From a virus, in the IMG/VR virus record IMGVR_UViG_3300042731_008603, positions 1 through 26,280 of that record: a DNA stretch of 26,280 nucleotides; one strand, written 5' to 3'. A program made the translations under genes and the position numbers. The first letter of the stretch is position 1. The number at the start of each line of letters is the position of its first letter. Shown piece by piece: positions 6,703-23,059 of this stretch. The notes under the pieces were generated by a model, which saw only the letters and a list, made by a program, of their open reading frames with translations, ran no database searches and was not told the origin of the DNA.

Positions 6703-7185
6703 ATGAGTTGGACCTATAAGACACATAAAATAGGAGACATCACTCAATTTCCAGAAAATACATTTGGTTTTGTTTACATAGTTACCCATGCCCCTTCAGG
6801 TAAAGCCTACATTGGAAAAAAAGTATTGTTCCATAATAAAAAACAAAAAATTGGAAAACGAGAATTAGAAAAACTATCAGGAGTAGTAGGACGTCGTCCT
6901 GCTTATAAATTAGTAGTTAAAGAATCTGATTGGCTTAATTATTATGGGTCTCAAAAAGAGATTAAACAATTATTACTTGAAGGTAAAAAAGATGAATTCC
7001 AACGTACCATTTTAAAAATGTGTCCTGATAAAAAATCATTAACTTATTTTGAAGTGAAATACCAAATGATATATCAGGTATTAGAAAAACCAGATGAATT
7101 TTTCAATGATAATATTTTAGGTAAATTTTATACAAGAGATTTATCGAATATTGAATTTGAAGATTTTGTGGAGGAGCATAAATAG
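6703..7185 (+). CDS. GIY-YIG-type nuclease-like protein
   Basis: A 160-aa protein with a GIY-YIG nuclease core: F23-V24-Y25, exactly 10 residues, then Y36-I37-G38, followed by the basic KKVLF strand. A conserved-looking SDWLNYYGS block sits at 75-83. A helix with E117 (LTYFEVKYQ) is the likely metal-binding glutamate. The first motif is FVY rather than GIY, a common variation. I recognise this arrangement from T4-like marine phages, where it is annotated as a Seg-like or hypothetical nuclease. There is no separate DNA-binding domain, so it may be a DNA-processing nuclease rather than a homing enzyme. It lies directly upstream of primase and the RecB-type nuclease, consistent with DNA metabolism. 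Confidence 0.65.
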   Translation: MSWTYKTHKIGDITQFPENTFGFVYIVTHAPSGKAYIGKKVLFHNKKQKIGKRELEKLSGVVGRRPAYKLVVKESDWLNYYGSQKEIKQLLLEGKKDEFQRTILKMCPDKKSLTYFEVKYQMIYQVLEKPDEFFNDNILGKFYTRDLSNIEFEDFVEEHK

Positions 7186-7203
7186 TTTTATATATTACCA
7201 TTT

Positions 7204-8133
7204 ATGGTAAATCAATTATTAGTTACATTAGTTAATTCTGTATTAGGTTCTGGCAAACCCACTGCTAGAAATAATTATGCATACCATTGTCCTTTTTGTA
7301 ACCACCATAAACCTAAATTAGAGGTTAATTTAACAGAAAATAGAGAAGGAAAAAATCCTTGGCATTGTTGGGCTTGTGATGTTAGAGGAACTACTATATA
7401 TAACTTATTTAAACAACTTAAAGTAGAAGCAGGGAAGTATACTGAATTAAAATCATTAGTTAAAACTTCTAAATCAATAAAAGAAACACAAGTTGTTAAC
7501 AGTGTAGTATTACCTAATGAATATATAAGCCTATCTACTGGTAATTTAAGCGATATTTCTGCTAAACACGCACTCGCCTACTTAAAAAGGAGAAATATAA
7601 GTAAATACGATGTAATTAAATATAATATAGGTTATTGTAAAAATGGTTTATATGCTAATATGATTATTATTCCAACTTATGATAAAGATGGTAGATTAAA
7701 TTATTTTACAGCTCGTTCATTTGAAAAAGAACCTTATATCAAATATAGAAATCCTTCAGCAAGTAGAGATATAATTCCAAATGAACATTTAATTAATTGG
7801 AATATACCAATTGTAATATGTGAAGGATTATTTGATGCTATTGCTATTAAACGAAATGCAATACCATTATTAGGAAAAAATATTCAAAGTAGCTTAATGA
7901 AAAAAATAGTTACTTCTGTAGTAGATAAAATTTATATAGCATTAGATAGGGATGCTATGAAACAAGCTTTACGTTTCTGTGAAAATTTAATGGCAGAAGG
8001 TAAAGAAGTCTATCTTGTTGATTTACAAGATAAGGATCCAAGTGAAATGGGTTTCAAGAATTTCACTAAATTAATTCAAAACACAGTTCCATTAACCTAC
8101 TATAATTTAATGGAAAGAAAACTAGCTTTATGA
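7204..8133 (+). CDS. DNA primase (zinc-binding plus Toprim)
   Basis: A 309-aa protein that should synthesise RNA primers for lagging-strand replication. A zinc-binding domain is formed by C29-x2-C32 and C55-x2-C58, the CHC2-like arrangement of phage primases. The Toprim domain follows: CEG with E207, then ALDRD with D248 and D250, the expected metal ligands. The length matches T4-like primases, which are shorter than DnaG and lack a helicase-binding C-terminus. It overlaps the next nuclease gene by ATGA, so both are probably coupled. The start is the first ATG after the upstream gene; a TTTG box 35 nt upstream was considered and rejected as a promoter. Confidence 0.88.
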   Translation: MVNQLLVTLVNSVLGSGKPTARNNYAYHCPFCNHHKPKLEVNLTENREGKNPWHCWACDVRGTTIYNLFKQLKVEAGKYTELKSLVKTSKSIKETQVVNSVVLPNEYISLSTGNLSDISAKHALAYLKRRNISKYDVIKYNIGYCKNGLYANMIIIPTYDKDGRLNYFTARSFEKEPYIKYRNPSASRDIIPNEHLINWNIPIVICEGLFDAIAIKRNAIPLLGKNIQSSLMKKIVTSVVDKIYIALDRDAMKQALRFCENLMAEGKEVYLVDLQDKDPSEMGFKNFTKLIQNTVPLTYYNLMERKLAL

Positions 8134-8897
8134 TCAAAAAATCATATGATAGAATATTAGAGATCTCAGATGATCACAAACAAATTACACTACCTGATTC
8201 ACGTTATTATAGACGTAATGGAGAATATTATCCCTCTGTAACTTATGTTTTAAATTCTTATCCTAAGGGTAAACATTTTCAAGATTGGCTTAAAAAAGTA
8301 GGATATAGTGCAGATTGGATTGTTAAAAAAGCATCTGAAGAAGGTACAGCAGTACATGAATTAATAGAGGAATACTTTGAAGGTAAAGAAATGAACTTCT
8401 TAAATGAGTATGGTAATCCTAAAATGAATCCTGAAATATGGAAAATGTTTTTAAGATTTGTTGATTTTTGGGAAACATATAAACCAACATTAGTTGAAAC
8501 AGAAACTCACCTATTCTCAGATGGATTAAAAGTAGCAGGTACCGTAGATTGTATTTGTGAAATTGATGGTGAATTATGGGTTATTGATTTTAAAACATCA
8601 AATCACTTACAAACTACATATGATTTACAAGGTGCTGTTTATGCTAAGTGTTATGAAGAATGTTTTGGTAAAAAAGTAGATAGAATAGGTGTATTATGGT
8701 TAAAATCTAAATCTAGAGGAGTTGATAAATCTGGTGCTAGATTAAAAGGTAAAAATTGGGAAATATATGAATCACCTAGAACCCAAGAAGAAAACTTAGA
8801 AATATTTGGATCAGTTAAAAAATTATTTGATTTAGAAAACCCAAAACATAAACCAGCTACTACTTCTTTTCAAACTACTGTTAAGAGAACCGTGTAA
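8130..8897 (+). CDS. RecB/Cas4-type PD-(D/E)XK exonuclease
   Basis: A 255-aa nuclease. The RecB-family motifs occur in order: the helix GTAVHELIEEY at 72-82 with H76 and E77, GTVD ending at D140, VIDFKTS at 151-157 (D153, K155), and QGAVYAKCY with the Q167-x3-Y171 motif typical of RecB, AddB and Cas4 nucleases. These residues bind two metals and cleave DNA, usually as an exonuclease in phage recombination or in recycling host DNA. No iron-sulphur cysteine cluster is evident, separating it from Cas4. It overlaps primase by 4 nt and is followed by a class I promoter, so it ends that operon. All catalytic positions are intact. Confidence 0.85.
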   Translation: MIKKSYDRILEISDDHKQITLPDSRYYRRNGEYYPSVTYVLNSYPKGKHFQDWLKKVGYSADWIVKKASEEGTAVHELIEEYFEGKEMNFLNEYGNPKMNPEIWKMFLRFVDFWETYKPTLVETETHLFSDGLKVAGTVDCICEIDGELWVIDFKTSNHLQTTYDLQGAVYAKCYEECFGKKVDRIGVLWLKSKSRGVDKSGARLKGKNWEIYESPRTQEENLEIFGSVKKLFDLENPKHKPATTSFQTTVKRTV

Positions 8898-19910: not shown

Positions 19911-20503
19911 TGAGCTGTAATTGTGAAAATAAAATAACGGGACCTTTGTTAACAGAAAGTAAAGTAAAATCTTTATTATCTGAAGGTCTACAATATCATA
20001 TAGATAATGAACTTCCTTTATTTGAAACAGTATATCGTATTGGTTCAGACAAACATTTATCCTTAATTAAAGAAGCTAGAAAATTATATTCTAGAAATGT
20101 AATTAATTTGTGTGAAGAAGATGAAGGTTTAATTAAAACCCATTTAGGTGAATTTGGAGTATATGAAGGTGAAAGTGTACCTTTAGATTTACCTATGTTA
20201 GATGAAAAGAAAAAAGCTAAGAAAAAGAAAAAAGATCCACCACTAGGTAAACCTAAAAGAGGTGGTTCTAAAGCATATTATGTTTATGTAAGGGATCCTA
20301 AAACTAAAAGAATTAAAAAAGTATCATTTGGTTCAGGCGGATTAAGAGCAAAAATTCGAAATTCTAAAGCAAGAAATGCTTTTGCTAAAAGACATAGATG
20401 TAAAGAAAAAAATGATAGAACTAAACCATCTTACTGGTCTTGTAGACTACCAAGATATGCTAGTGCATTAGGTTTAGGAGCAAATATGAATACCTTCTGG
20501 TAA
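19910..20503 (+). CDS. Two-part virion-type protein: core-like module plus basic Cys/Trp module
   Basis: The ATG at 19910 is chosen because it makes the TAATG stop-start overlap seen at neighbouring junctions; an in-frame ATG lies 9 nt upstream. This gives 197 aa. LLTE|S at 13-17 and LLSE|G at 22-26 are candidate protease sites. Residues 27-95 (NELPLFETVYRIGSDKH, then GEFGVYEGESVPLDLPML) are a family I recognise from T4-like phages. MLDE at 96-99 separates this from a Lys-rich linker (KKKAKKKKKD). The C-terminal module has YYVYVRDPKTKRIKKVSFG and an RNAFAKRHRC, YWSCRLPRY pattern, common in marine phages. It is strongly basic with paired Cys, so it plausibly binds DNA, perhaps condensing it in the head. 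Function is inferred. Confidence 0.65.
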   Translation: MSCNCENKITGPLLTESKVKSLLSEGLQYHIDNELPLFETVYRIGSDKHLSLIKEARKLYSRNVINLCEEDEGLIKTHLGEFGVYEGESVPLDLPMLDEKKKAKKKKKDPPLGKPKRGGSKAYYVYVRDPKTKRIKKVSFGSGGLRAKIRNSKARNAFAKRHRCKEKNDRTKPSYWSCRLPRYASALGLGANMNTFW

Positions 20504-20919
20504 TGGAAAGAGTTAGAGAAGCAATACATAACGTTTTAAATGAAAAAAAGAAAAAACGAGATAGATGTCTTCGTATTGCTGACCGCAAATTTAAAAAACC
20601 ATCAGCTTATAAATCAGGAGCTGTAGTCAGATGTCGTAAAGGAGACATTTGGAAAGGAGTAAAAGAACACGTTCAAACTTTAAGTGAAAAAGAAAAAGAA
20701 TCTTTACACAAATGGTTTAAACGTTCTGGTCCTTCAGGTAAAGAAGGTGGTTGGGTTGATTGTAATACAGGTAGAAAAGATTCTAAAACAGGTAAAATGA
20801 AATATAAAGCCTGCGGTAGAAAAAAAGGAGAAAAAAGAGCAAAATACCCATCTTGTAGACCTACACCTTCAAAATGTAAGGATAAAGGAAAAGGTAAATC
20901 ATGGGGGAAAACAAAATAA
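20503..20919 (+). CDS. Basic Cys-rich protein of the WVDCNTGRK family
   Basis: A 138-aa, very Lys/Arg-rich protein. MERVREAIHNVLNE at 1-14 is an amphipathic helix ending in L-N-E, again like a capsid-targeting peptide. Residues 20-48 contain RIADRKFKKPSAYKSGAVVR and GDIWKGV. The C-terminal 70 residues have the recurrent pattern HKWF, GGWVDCNTGRK, ACGRKKGEKR, YPSCRPTPSKC, GKGKSWGKT, known from marine phages and, as I recall, from algal giant viruses (possibly DUF5872). The regularly spaced Cys and basic residues suggest DNA or RNA binding, possibly zinc dependent. TAATG coupling to the preceding gene with the same character suggests the pair works together. The next gene starts 19 nt inside it. 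Confidence 0.65.
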   Translation: MERVREAIHNVLNEKKKKRDRCLRIADRKFKKPSAYKSGAVVRCRKGDIWKGVKEHVQTLSEKEKESLHKWFKRSGPSGKEGGWVDCNTGRKDSKTGKMKYKACGRKKGEKRAKYPSCRPTPSKCKDKGKGKSWGKTK

Positions 20920-21167
20920 ATCCTTATCTTGATAAGGGTAATATAAGAACATTTTCTAAAGATGTTGATCCAATGGAATTGGTTTGGCATCAAGATGATG
21001 AAGATAGAACAATAGAAATTCTTGAAGGCGAAGGATGGTGTATCCAACGAGATAATATGTTACCTCGAGCAATGAAAGAAGGTGAAACAATATTTATAAC
21101 TAAAGGTGAAATTCACCGTGTATTAAAAGGTACAACTGATCTAAAAATTAGAATAAATGAAATGTAA
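20901..21167 (+). CDS. Small cupin-fold protein
   Basis: An 88-aa protein with the two-part cupin pattern: WHQDDEDRTIEILEGEGW at about 29-46, with H30 and acidic residues, and GETIFITKGEIHRV at about 61-74, with H73. The usual first motif G(X)5HXH(X)3-4E is only partly kept, so metal binding is possible but not certain. Short cupins of this kind occur in T4-like marine phages without known substrate. Sugar-nucleotide isomerase-like or binding roles are typical of the fold. It overlaps the preceding gene by 19 nt. The metallothionein-like peptide starts 11 nt before its end in another frame. Confidence 0.65.
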   Translation: MGENKINPYLDKGNIRTFSKDVDPMELVWHQDDEDRTIEILEGEGWCIQRDNMLPRAMKEGETIFITKGEIHRVLKGTTDLKIRINEM

Positions 21168-21222
21168 TTGTAAAGTATGTAATTGCGGAACATCATGTGA
21201 TTGTACATGCTGTAATTGCTAA
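21157..21222 (+). CDS. Metallothionein-like Cys-rich micropeptide
   Basis: A 21-codon ORF, ATG at 21157 and TAA at 21220-21222, too short for usual gene callers. Nine of 21 residues are Cys (positions 3, 5, 8, 10, 14, 16, 18, 19, 21), giving five C-x-C motifs and one CC. The rest are only M, K, N, V, G, T, S and D, with no aromatic residue. Such a composition does not arise by chance from this AT-rich DNA and is typical of metallothioneins, which bind Zn, Cd or Cu(I) through clustered thiolates. Nine Cys would suit a cluster of about three metals. The start overlaps the cupin gene by 11 nt, consistent with translational coupling. The next gene starts 12 nt after the stop. Possible roles are metal supply to virion zinc proteins, metal or redox protection, or host interference. 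Confidence 0.6.
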   Translation: MKCNCKVCNCGTSCDCTCCNC

Positions 21223-21447: not shown

Positions 21448-21461
21448 AATAAAAATTTATA

Positions 21462-21482
21462 GGATAGATTCATAGCCTATCC
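21462..21482 (+). other. Small hairpin upstream of terminator
   Basis: GGATAG at 21462-21467 can pair with CTATCC at 21477-21482 across a 9-nt loop. It is followed by a 30-nt purine-rich run before the terminator. It could be a 3'-UTR stability element or part of a small RNA. The evidence is base-pairing only. Confidence 0.3.
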
Positions 21483-21514
21483 GCTCGAAAGAGAAAGAAA
21501 AGAATAAAGAGATC

Positions 21515-21547
21515 TGTGGCCTCCGTTTGGAGGCCACATTTTAGTTT
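21515..21547 (+). terminator. Rho-independent terminator
   Basis: A perfect 10-bp GC-rich stem: TGTGGCCTCC at 21515-21524 pairs with GGAGGCCACA at 21529-21538 around a GTTT loop, followed by TTTTAGTTT. It is the most GC-rich segment nearby and the only clear intrinsic terminator in the window. The TTTG box of the next class I promoter overlaps its loop and descending arm. Confidence 0.8.
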
Positions 21548-21557
21548 CGTATATTAA
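21526..21557 (+). promoter_or_regulatory. Class I promoter overlapping the terminator
   Basis: TTTG at 21526-21529 inside the terminator hairpin, 20 nt, then TATATTAA at 21550-21557 preceded by TTCG. It ends 22 nt before the ATG at 21580. Geometry and the TTCGTATATT string match the site at 8901. Confidence 0.65.
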
Positions 21558-21579
21558 TGTGTTAAAAATAAAAGTATAG

Positions 21580-21735
21580 ATGAATATAGATAAAGAATTC
21601 TACTTAGTAAGAAAAAGTGAAGGTAATTCATTTCAAAGATTAATGATGTTTTTTTTAGAACAAAACAAAAAACATGGTGCTAGTTTTGGAGTAGCAGGAA
21701 TGTATAATACACTAAATAGATTTTATGGCGAGTAA
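21580..21735 (+). CDS. 51-aa protein of unknown function
   Basis: A short ORF not caught by a longer-length cut-off: ATG at 21580, TAA at 21733-21735. It begins MNIDKEFYLVRKSEG and continues as a helix (FQRLMMFFLEQNKKHG), ending GMYNTLNRFYGE. It is placed 22 nt after a strong class I promoter and overlaps the start of the FAD-dependent dehydrogenase by 11 nt, so it is very likely translated and coupled to it. No family was recognised. It may be a small partner of the dehydrogenase or an early host-interaction protein. Confidence 0.6.
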   Translation: MNIDKEFYLVRKSEGNSFQRLMMFFLEQNKKHGASFGVAGMYNTLNRFYGE

Positions 21736-23059
21736 AAACGTAGTAATTGTAGGAGCAGGAGTAGCAGGTGTAAATGCCGCTACTAAATTAATAGATAATA
21801 ACTTTGATGGTAAAATTACTATCATTGATATGGGTAAAGACCCATATAGAAGACCTTATGAAGAAGTAATGACGGGATTCCTCGGTGCAGGGGGCTGGAG
21901 CGATGGTAAACTAACCTACCACACTGCTATTGGTGGTCATCTTTCTAAGTATACGGGTGATGAAAAAGCAATGGAGTTGATGGATCAGGTGATTGAAAAT
22001 TTCAAACGATTCCACCCTAAACCAGAAGAAGTGCAATGCTCTAACCCTGTAGCTGAGCCCGATTTTATTAAACCATATTTTGGATTACGTTTATTCCCAG
22101 TATGGCACGTTGGTACAGATTATTTACATGAAATAGGTAAAAATTGGTATGACTTTTTAGTTGATAATGGTGTTAATTTTAGATGGGAAGAAAAAGTAAT
22201 AGATATTGATTTTGATAAACAAGAAGTTTATACAGATAATTATACAATGCTTTATGATACACTTATTTTTGGTGTAGGTAAATCAGGTATTGATTTTGGG
22301 AAGCAATTAGCTGAAAAATATGATTTGCCTACTGAACCCAAACCAGTCCAAATTGGGGTTAGATTTGAAGCACCCCAAAAACATTTCCAAAAATTAATTG
22401 ATGTTTCTTATGATTTTAAATTATATAGAAAATATGAAGATAAAGGAGTATCGCTCAGGAGTTTCTGTACTAATAACAATGCTGCCTACGTTGCAGTTGA
22501 GGAAACTTATGGCGACCACAGTTATAATGGACACGCTAAAAAAGATGAGTCGTTCCGAAATGATATGACTAATTTTGGTATTCTAATGGAAGTTAGAGGT
22601 ATTGAAAAACCATTTGATTGGTCTAGAGAAGTAGTAAATAAACTACAGAAAAATGGTACTGGTTTATATTATAGTCCAAGTAGAGAACCATCTACAACAT
22701 CTGAAGGTATAGATGTATCAGCAGTTAAAGTAGATACACTACATGAAATATCTAAAGCAATGCAACCATATTTTGGTTATGTTTATGATTTTATTGAGGA
22801 TATGAAAAAAGTATTCCCTACACTTAAAGATGATTGGGGTATTTATGTTCCTGAAGTAAAGTATCTTTCACCTGAACCATTAGTTAATTATGATAATTTA
22901 TCTTTAACTAAATTTCCAAATGTTCATTTTGTAGGTGATGCTTTAAGTGCTAGAGGTATTACAGTATCAGGATCCCAAGGTACACTTGTTGCCGAGAAAA
23001 TTTTGGAGAACAGTAAAAAAAGTCGTATATTTAACCAAACTAAATTAGAAAAAGTATGA
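21725..23059 (+). CDS. FAD-dependent dehydrogenase (COG2509-like)
   Basis: A 444-aa flavoprotein. The N-terminal Rossmann dinucleotide fold is clear: VVIVGAGVAGVNAATKL with G10-x-G12-x2-G15, and an acidic end of strand 2 (IIDMG). GAGGWSDGKL near residues 55-64 is characteristic of the uncharacterised FAD-dependent dehydrogenases of COG2509. TLIFGVGKSGIDF at about 180-192 fits a second nucleotide-contacting turn, and the C-terminal FVGDALSARGITVSGSQGT binds the FAD ribityl end. The fold is complete. Substrate is unknown, but the family may act on unsaturated or cyclic small molecules. Such a metabolic enzyme is unusual in a phage. It is read from the class I promoter at 21526 with the 51-aa protein and overlaps the next gene by ATGA. 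Confidence 0.8.
   Translation: MASKNVVIVGAGVAGVNAATKLIDNNFDGKITIIDMGKDPYRRPYEEVMTGFLGAGGWSDGKLTYHTAIGGHLSKYTGDEKAMELMDQVIENFKRFHPKPEEVQCSNPVAEPDFIKPYFGLRLFPVWHVGTDYLHEIGKNWYDFLVDNGVNFRWEEKVIDIDFDKQEVYTDNYTMLYDTLIFGVGKSGIDFGKQLAEKYDLPTEPKPVQIGVRFEAPQKHFQKLIDVSYDFKLYRKYEDKGVSLRSFCTNNNAAYVAVEETYGDHSYNGHAKKDESFRNDMTNFGILMEVRGIEKPFDWSREVVNKLQKNGTGLYYSPSREPSTTSEGIDVSAVKVDTLHEISKAMQPYFGYVYDFIEDMKKVFPTLKDDWGIYVPEVKYLSPEPLVNYDNLSLTKFPNVHFVGDALSARGITVSGSQGTLVAEKILENSKKSRIFNQTKLEKV
23002..23033 (+). promoter_or_regulatory. Class I promoter inside the dehydrogenase gene
   Basis: TTTG at 23002-23005, 20 nt, then TATATTTA at 23026-23033 preceded by TCG. It ends 22 nt before the ATG at 23056. It lies in the last codons of the upstream gene yet has the same spacing and CGTATATTTA string as 8901, giving the downstream genes their own transcript. 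Confidence 0.6.

What the first reader, a model, noticed from the sequence alone, without database searches (positions are those of the whole stretch)
21157..21222. Overlooked metallothionein-like 21-residue peptide
Seen: nine Cys in 21 residues, five C-x-C and one CC, in a frame with proper start and stop, overlapping the cupin gene by 11 nt. Random AT-rich DNA would not encode this. Known: short Cys-rich chains with C-x-C repeats bind d10 metals. Inference: a phage metallothionein, perhaps loading zinc into the many zinc-type phage proteins here, or buffering metal or oxidants. At this size it is below most gene callers and may be widespread yet unannotated.
Basis: partly seen in the sequence, partly recalled or inferred. 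Interest (0 to 1): 0.8.

Follow-up and report, generated by a model that had tools for sequence, protein, structure and literature searches.

The report
Tiny metallothionein-like peptide of marine phages
Relatives of phage T4 that probably infect marine flavobacteria carry an overlooked 20-23-residue gene, almost half cysteine and almost invariant at those cysteines, that looks like a minimal metal-binding (metallothionein-like) peptide, shorter than the 26-residue fungal forms once held to be the shortest.

Summary
The ORF at 21157-21222 is real: MKCNCKVCNCGTSCDCTCCNC, nine Cys in 21 residues, overlapping a cupin-like gene by 11 nt. It belongs to an unannotated family, consensus M(K)C-N-C-K/Q-x-C-x-C-G-x-S-C-x-C-x-C-C-N/D-C-stop. 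I found 129 distinct cores in 154 genomic contexts, nearly all IMG/VR contigs; 13 of 16 records tested hold a T4 gp23 capsid gene, and three copies lie in flavobacterial genomes. Two scans that left half of the Cys unconstrained still found them: 269 of 270 and 287 of 288 free Cys positions are Cys. Non-Cys codons evolve more freely (pN/pS 0.56). Start sites have the A(-3), A(-6), A(-12/-13) context of highly translated Flavobacterium genes, stronger than that of ordinary phage genes. The peptide occurs at several genomic sites as a small accessory gene, so tight coupling to the cupin or FAD dehydrogenase, or a Cys-attenuator role, is unlikely. No Pfam, PHROG, NCBIfam or PDB match reached significance. 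Best reading: a phage-encoded minimal metallothionein-like thiolate peptide that buffers d10 metal, or acts as a thiol buffer, during infection. Metal binding and function are inferred.

The parts
21157..21222 (+). 21-residue metallothionein-like peptide gene (MKCNCKVCNCGTSCDCTCCNC)
   Evidence: translation; family in 154 contexts; Cys conservation in scans with half of the Cys left free
20901..21167 (+). upstream cupin-like protein, overlaps the peptide gene by 11 nt; marks one of the sites where the peptide occurs
   Evidence: Pfam Cupin_2 E 0.005, below the gathering score; 104 relatives in IMG/VR, best 80 kept
21143..21156 (+). A-rich start-site context: A at -10 to -14; -3 is T and -6 is G here, where the stretch also encodes the cupin C terminus
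   Evidence: read; family-wide start context compared with PMC6847099
21235..21447 (+). 70-aa ORF between the peptide and the terminator element, no family match
21462..21482 (+). conserved hairpin GGATAG-ATTCATAGC-CTATCC near the end of the operon, a neighbour and not part of the peptide
   Evidence: covarying stems around an invariant loop
21515..21546 (+). terminator-like hairpin TGTGGCCTCC-GTTT-GGAGGCCACA followed by a T-rich stretch
   Evidence: sequence, conserved in relatives
21725..23059 (+). FAD/NAD oxidoreductase downstream; its family is found in 63 of 154 peptide contexts, not exclusive to peptide carriers
   Evidence: Pfam Pyr_redox_2 E 7.8e-9; neighbourhood clustering

Best explanation
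The ORF encodes a minimal metallothionein-like peptide of T4-type phages that probably infect marine Bacteroidota. Shown: a large family with invariant spacing C-x-C-x2-C-x-C-x3-C-x-C-x-CC-x-C and the stop directly after the last Cys, strong selection on Cys, small polar residues between them, no aromatic residues, and a strong Bacteroidota-type start context. Inferred: it is made in quantity in the reducing cytosol, where its nine thiolates wrap a small d10-metal cluster (by analogy M(II)3Cys9 or a Cu(I) cluster) and so buffer or sequester zinc, copper or cadmium, and possibly oxidants, during infection. Which metal, and what the phage gains, is open; freeing or capturing metal as host proteins are degraded and phage metalloproteins are made is a plausible but untested benefit.
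For: Scan with the first half fixed and the second half free: 53 of 54 distinct peptides keep all five free Cys; reverse scan: 71 of 72 keep all four. Non-Cys pN/pS 0.56; Ser13 is encoded by both TCN and AGY codons. Core composition: 47% Cys, the rest mostly N, S, K, T, D, G, E; no F, W or Y. Start context: A(-3) 85%, A(-6) 74%, A(-12) 85%, A(-13) 82%, against 58, 53, 60, 63% for genes of at least 120 aa and 36, 39, 41, 35% for random ATGs; these are the positions shown to raise translation in Flavobacterium johnsoniae (PMC6847099). Cys pattern close to fungal Cu-metallothioneins, 26 aa with [CXC]-X5-[CXC]-X3-[CXC]-X2-C (PMC4755600): phage C8-C10-x3-C14-C16-x2-C19 reproduces the last five Cys of it. 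The only profile hit of a family member was plant Metallothio_2, not significant (E 2.4). Zn3Cys9 is a common metallothionein cluster (PMC10612145). Carriers: gp23 in 13 of 16 records, nearest isolates Flavobacterium phage immuto.
Against: No metal binding, expression or phenotype has been measured. No metal transporter, sensor or metal-responsive gene was seen among the recurrent neighbours that could be annotated, and most of those neighbours lack a functional assignment. The peptide is accessory: absent from about 70% of relatives with the same cupin-to-element site and from the five related isolate or metagenome phage records searched. Matching nine-Cys spacing among members is partly imposed by the search patterns, although the two half-free scans remove most of that bias.
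Confidence: 0.68

Rival explanations
1. A thiol/redox buffer or a disulfide-forming peptide, rather than a metal buffer: the nine Cys scavenge oxidants or serve as electron donor or acceptor for the FAD oxidoreductase often encoded downstream.
For: 63 of 154 contexts have a Pyr_redox_2-type FAD protein downstream, median +184 nt. Metallothioneins in general are also credited with protection against reactive species (PMC10612145).
Against: 91 contexts lack that enzyme in the fetched flank, and a terminator-like element lies between the two in the window and its relatives. C-x-C and CC arrangements with no aromatic residues are typical of metal-thiolate clusters.
Confidence: 0.15
2. A small Cys4-type metal site (zinc or iron-sulphur) peptide that binds and modulates one specific host protein, such as RNA polymerase or a sensor.
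For: Phage genes for host takeover are often tiny (general knowledge); Gly11 and Ser13 are conserved besides the Cys.
Against: All nine Cys are conserved rather than four, and the peptide has almost no hydrophobic or aromatic surface for a specific interface.
Confidence: 0.1
3. A cysteine-sensing leader peptide (attenuator) controlling the downstream gene through the terminator hairpin.
For: Cys-rich short ORF with the conserved hairpin element starting 11-21 nt after the stop in 46 of the 62 contexts that hold it.
Against: Exact Cys spacing, Gly and Ser are kept, which attenuation does not need; in the window a 70-aa ORF lies between them; 92 contexts lack the element within 2.5 kb, and in many the next gene starts a few nt after the stop with no hairpin; the element also follows operons without the peptide, in about 50 of 73 loci.
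Confidence: 0.03
4. Precursor of a Cys-modified peptide (RiPP/SCIFF-like) or a chance ORF.
For: Short and Cys-rich.
Against: No radical-SAM or lanthionine enzyme among the window genes and recurrent neighbours scanned; no leader plus core layout; chance is excluded by conservation.
Confidence: 0.04

Closest known systems
Fungal copper metallothioneins (Family 8: Neurospora crassa, Agaricus bisporus)
   Same: Single short domain, C-x-C-rich, small spacers; the stretch C-x-C-x3-C-x-C-x2-C is identical in spacing (PMC4755600).
   Different: 26 residues and 7 Cys with X5 between the first two C-x-C pairs; the phage peptide has 20-23 residues and 9 Cys with X2 there, a CC, and ends on Cys. No sequence homology shown.
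Bacterial metallothioneins (SmtA/BmtA, Pfam prokaryotic metallothionein)
   Same: Prokaryotic Cys-rich metal-buffering proteins (general knowledge).
   Different: Known bacterial forms are larger, with His ligands and a zinc-finger-like fold (general knowledge); no Pfam hit for the phage peptide.
Plant type 2 metallothionein (PF01439), C-terminal Cys domain
   Same: C-x-C-x3-C-x-C-x2-C-x-C spacing can be laid over phage Cys 8-21; the one profile hit found (E 2.4, not significant).
   Different: Eukaryotic, two Cys domains with a long spacer (general knowledge); the resemblance is probably convergent.
Metallothionein domains with a Zn3Cys9 cluster (vertebrate beta-domain, plant Ec-1 betaE)
   Same: Nine Cys, the number that holds three divalent metals (PMC10612145).
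   Different: Different spacing and one part of a larger protein; stoichiometry of the phage peptide unmeasured.

Membership tests
Metallothioneins (broad, functional class) | Small, very Cys-rich with C-x-C/CC motifs and few or no aromatic residues | tested here: met
   20-23 residues for nearly all members, 47% Cys in the 19-aa core, no F/W/Y in 129 cores
Metallothioneins (broad, functional class) | Cys conserved by selection | tested here: met
   269/270 and 287/288 free Cys positions kept
Metallothioneins (broad, functional class) | Binds d10 metal ions as thiolate clusters | not testable with these tools
   needs mass spectrometry or spectroscopy
Prokaryotic metallothionein (Pfam model; SmtA/BmtA) | Profile match | tested here: not met
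   no hit for any of five members at E up to 10 (HMMER filters may drop very weak matches)
Fungal Family 8 metallothionein | X2-[CXC]-X5-[CXC]-X3-[CXC]-X2-C-X3, 7 Cys | tested here: not met
   phage spacing is CXC-X2-CXC-X3-CXC-X-CC-X-C; only the last five Cys agree
Cys attenuator leader peptide | Fixed short distance to a terminator/antiterminator of the regulated gene | tested here: not met
   92 of 154 contexts lack the element within 2.5 kb; 245 nt and another ORF intervene in the window
SCIFF/RiPP precursor | Adjacent maturase (radical SAM or similar) | tested here: inconclusive
   none among the window genes and recurrent neighbours scanned with Pfam; not every context scanned

The most novel reading that the evidence does not exclude
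T4-like phages of marine Bacteroidota carry, as a mobile accessory gene, a very highly translated 20-23-residue metallothionein, the smallest known, shared with the chromosomes of a few marine flavobacteria, which manipulates the metal budget of infected cells and is missed by annotation pipelines.
Probability: 0.5. Interest if true: 0.75.

Novelty: new variant of a known kind. Interest (0 to 1): 0.62.

Why it matters
If it binds metal, it shows that phages manage the trace-metal chemistry of their hosts with a gene of only about 65 nt, sets a new lower size limit for metallothioneins, and gives a peptide that is easy to synthesise and test. It also shows that annotation size cut-offs hide conserved phage functions: neither PHROGs, Pfam nor NCBIfam has a model that matches it.

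Tried and rejected
tblastn of the peptide against isolate phages gave nothing, but BLAST masks such low-complexity sequence, so this is not evidence of absence; direct pattern scans of five related records were used instead and were empty. The first pattern scans without a stop codon returned mostly low-complexity Cys runs; requiring a stop and at most 10 Cys cleaned this. PDB searches with the peptide and with a 28-sequence profile found nothing. Structure prediction was not possible (minimum 30 residues). Rfam had no significant match for the neighbouring RNA element. Literature searches for phage metallothioneins found no report, within an open-access library only. Cys attenuation, chance ORF and RiPP precursor were considered and disfavoured. 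The FAD dehydrogenase as obligate partner was rejected because the peptide is found in other contexts too. The start of each member was taken as the nearest upstream ATG; some members could start a few codons earlier.

Full report
Observation. The ORF 21157-21222 reads MKCNCKVCNCGTSCDCTCCNC with ATG and TAA in place, nine Cys, five C-x-C and one CC, and overlaps the cupin-like ORF 20901-21167 by 11 nt. The window is a 26,280-base virus record. In 60 dinucleotide shuffles no stop-free 21-residue stretch exceeded six Cys. An antisense frame near 335-380 is also Cys-rich because the DNA there is repetitive, so conservation, not composition, decides.

Relatives. Of 80 IMG/VR loci fetched by the cupin protein alone, about a quarter carry the same peptide directly or a little further downstream: MKCNCKICGCGVSCNCTCCHC, MKCNCKTCGCGISCECTCCNC, MCNCQECKCGTSCGCTCCNC and others. 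After cleaning there are 144 distinct core DNAs, 129 distinct cores and 154 distinct contexts. Consensus M(K)CNC(K/Q)xC(N/K)CGTSC(D/E)C(T/S)CC(N/D)C, stop directly after the last Cys. Rare variants: C to H at one position (L421, L441), C to Y (L481, L483), one residue shorter (L005), and longer forms with an N-terminal extension (L151, L395).

Is Cys conserved, without circularity? Two scans left half of the molecule free. With the first half fixed (102 stretches, complete scan), 53 of 54 distinct peptides have all five free Cys. With the second half fixed, 71 of 72 have all four. Between nearest-neighbour pairs non-Cys codons show pN/pS 0.56; Cys codons differ between TGT and TGC in 127 of 972 comparisons (in that set Cys is imposed by the pattern). 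Ser13 uses both TCN and AGY codons. So it is protein-coding, with strong constraint on Cys and looser constraint between them.

Is it translated? Upstream of the 139 distinct start contexts A is enriched at -3 (85%), -6 (74%) and -11 to -14 (69-85%), above ordinary genes of at least 120 aa in the same contigs (53-65%) and random ATGs (35-42%); Shine-Dalgarno-like motifs are nearly absent (1%). Positions -3, -6, -12 and -13 are those where A raises translation in Flavobacterium johnsoniae (PMC6847099). This supports a Bacteroidota host and efficient translation, but it is indirect. In the window itself -10 to -14 are A, while -3 and -6 are T and G, in sequence that also encodes the cupin C terminus.

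Who carries it? A T4 gp23 major capsid gene is present in 13 of 16 carrier or window records tested (the 26-kb window fragment and the records of L408 and L409 had none). The nearest isolates by capsid protein are Flavobacterium phages immuto (56% identity) and Microcystis phage Mel-JY01 (50%). The peptide is absent from the immuto, Melnitz, pT24, Mel-JY01 and LR756508 records. In bacteria it is rare: 395 Bacteroidota genomes drawn across the phylum gave only the centre genome G009 itself, but three small-genome relatives carry it (a Cryomorphaceae MAG, L316; G009, L502; G167, L504). The G009 copy lies about 680 nt upstream of a gene that reads as EF-Tu, and the L316 copy is near a tRNA-Arg. 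These are probably chromosomal, though assembly or binning errors cannot be excluded. The reversed control pattern gave no match.

Where does it sit? At least three recurrent settings: (a) upstream of an FAD/NAD oxidoreductase, a nucleotide kinase-like gene and often the terminase (window type, 63 contexts); (b) near a GIY-YIG endonuclease, a primase and a PD-(D/E)XK nuclease, genes that in the window lie at 6703-8897 without the peptide; (c) beside a third, unannotated set of genes. In setting (a) it is usually the last gene before a conserved hairpin/terminator element, whose loop starts 11-21 nt after the peptide stop in 46 of 62 contexts with the element; relatives without the peptide have cupin or other genes directly before the same element. 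It is therefore an accessory gene gained or lost at several sites, and its function should not depend on a particular neighbour.

What is it? No significant family or PDB match. Composition, size, spacing and absence of aromatic residues fit the broad metallothionein class. It is shorter and denser in Cys than the 26-residue, 7-Cys fungal forms once regarded as the shortest, and shares with them C-x-C-x3-C-x-C-x2-C (PMC4755600). Nine Cys is the number in the common Zn3Cys9 cluster (PMC10612145). I therefore propose a metal-thiolate buffer peptide; metal identity and benefit are inferred. Membership in the named metallothionein families considered was tested by profile or pattern and not met, so it is filed as a new metallothionein-like variant by likeness, not by descent.

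Limits. IMG/VR scans were capped at 119 rows, so counts are lower bounds; many contigs are fragments; isolation sources were not available to me, so 'marine' rests on the nearest isolates and the small-genome flavobacterial relatives. The literature library is open access only.

Noticed in passing
21455-21560 (+): Conserved noncoding element: 5-6 bp hairpin with clear compensatory changes (AGACTG/CAGTCG, GGATAG/CTATCC, AGTCCG/CGGACG, AGTTCG/CGAACG, AGCTCG/CGAGCG, AACCCG/CGGGTG) around an invariant 9-nt loop ATTCATAGC, then an AU-rich linker, a terminator hairpin starting CTGTGGC, and CGTATATT. 107 distinct copies in the fetched contigs; no significant Rfam match. Could be a phage small RNA or operon-end element.
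   Followed up: partly
Loci downstream of the cupin homologue, e.g. L002, L004, L006, L016, L023, L045: Between cupin and the hairpin element lie many different genes that share an N-terminal tag (MDNFDLRKYLAEGKL, MKELYRFRQFLTEG; 59 of 72 distinct N-termini contain a hydrophobic-x-E motif). This resembles the capsid-targeting sequence of T4 internal proteins (PMC3012670) and suggests a variable cassette of packaged, injected proteins.
   Followed up: partly
L045 around 3146: A copy of the ATTCATAGC hairpin without the terminator sits directly upstream of a tagged cassette gene, so the hairpin is not only a terminator part.
   Followed up: no
L505 (G562:C1:150626-152065): The gp23 match contains one in-frame TAA, possibly an intron or a frameshift.
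   Followed up: no
L013 and L029, after or near the cupin: Another small Cys-containing ORF family at the same site (MKEKICNLICKITFNKVCIGWCDNKCCS), unrelated in spacing.
   Followed up: no
20503-20919 (+): DUF5872 protein rich in Lys and Cys; the only part of the peptide neighbourhood with DNA similarity to isolate phages (immuto, 77% identity over 9% of the query).
   Followed up: no
1-700: Highly repetitive coding region whose other frames give long artefactual ORFs, including Cys-rich ones.
   Followed up: partly
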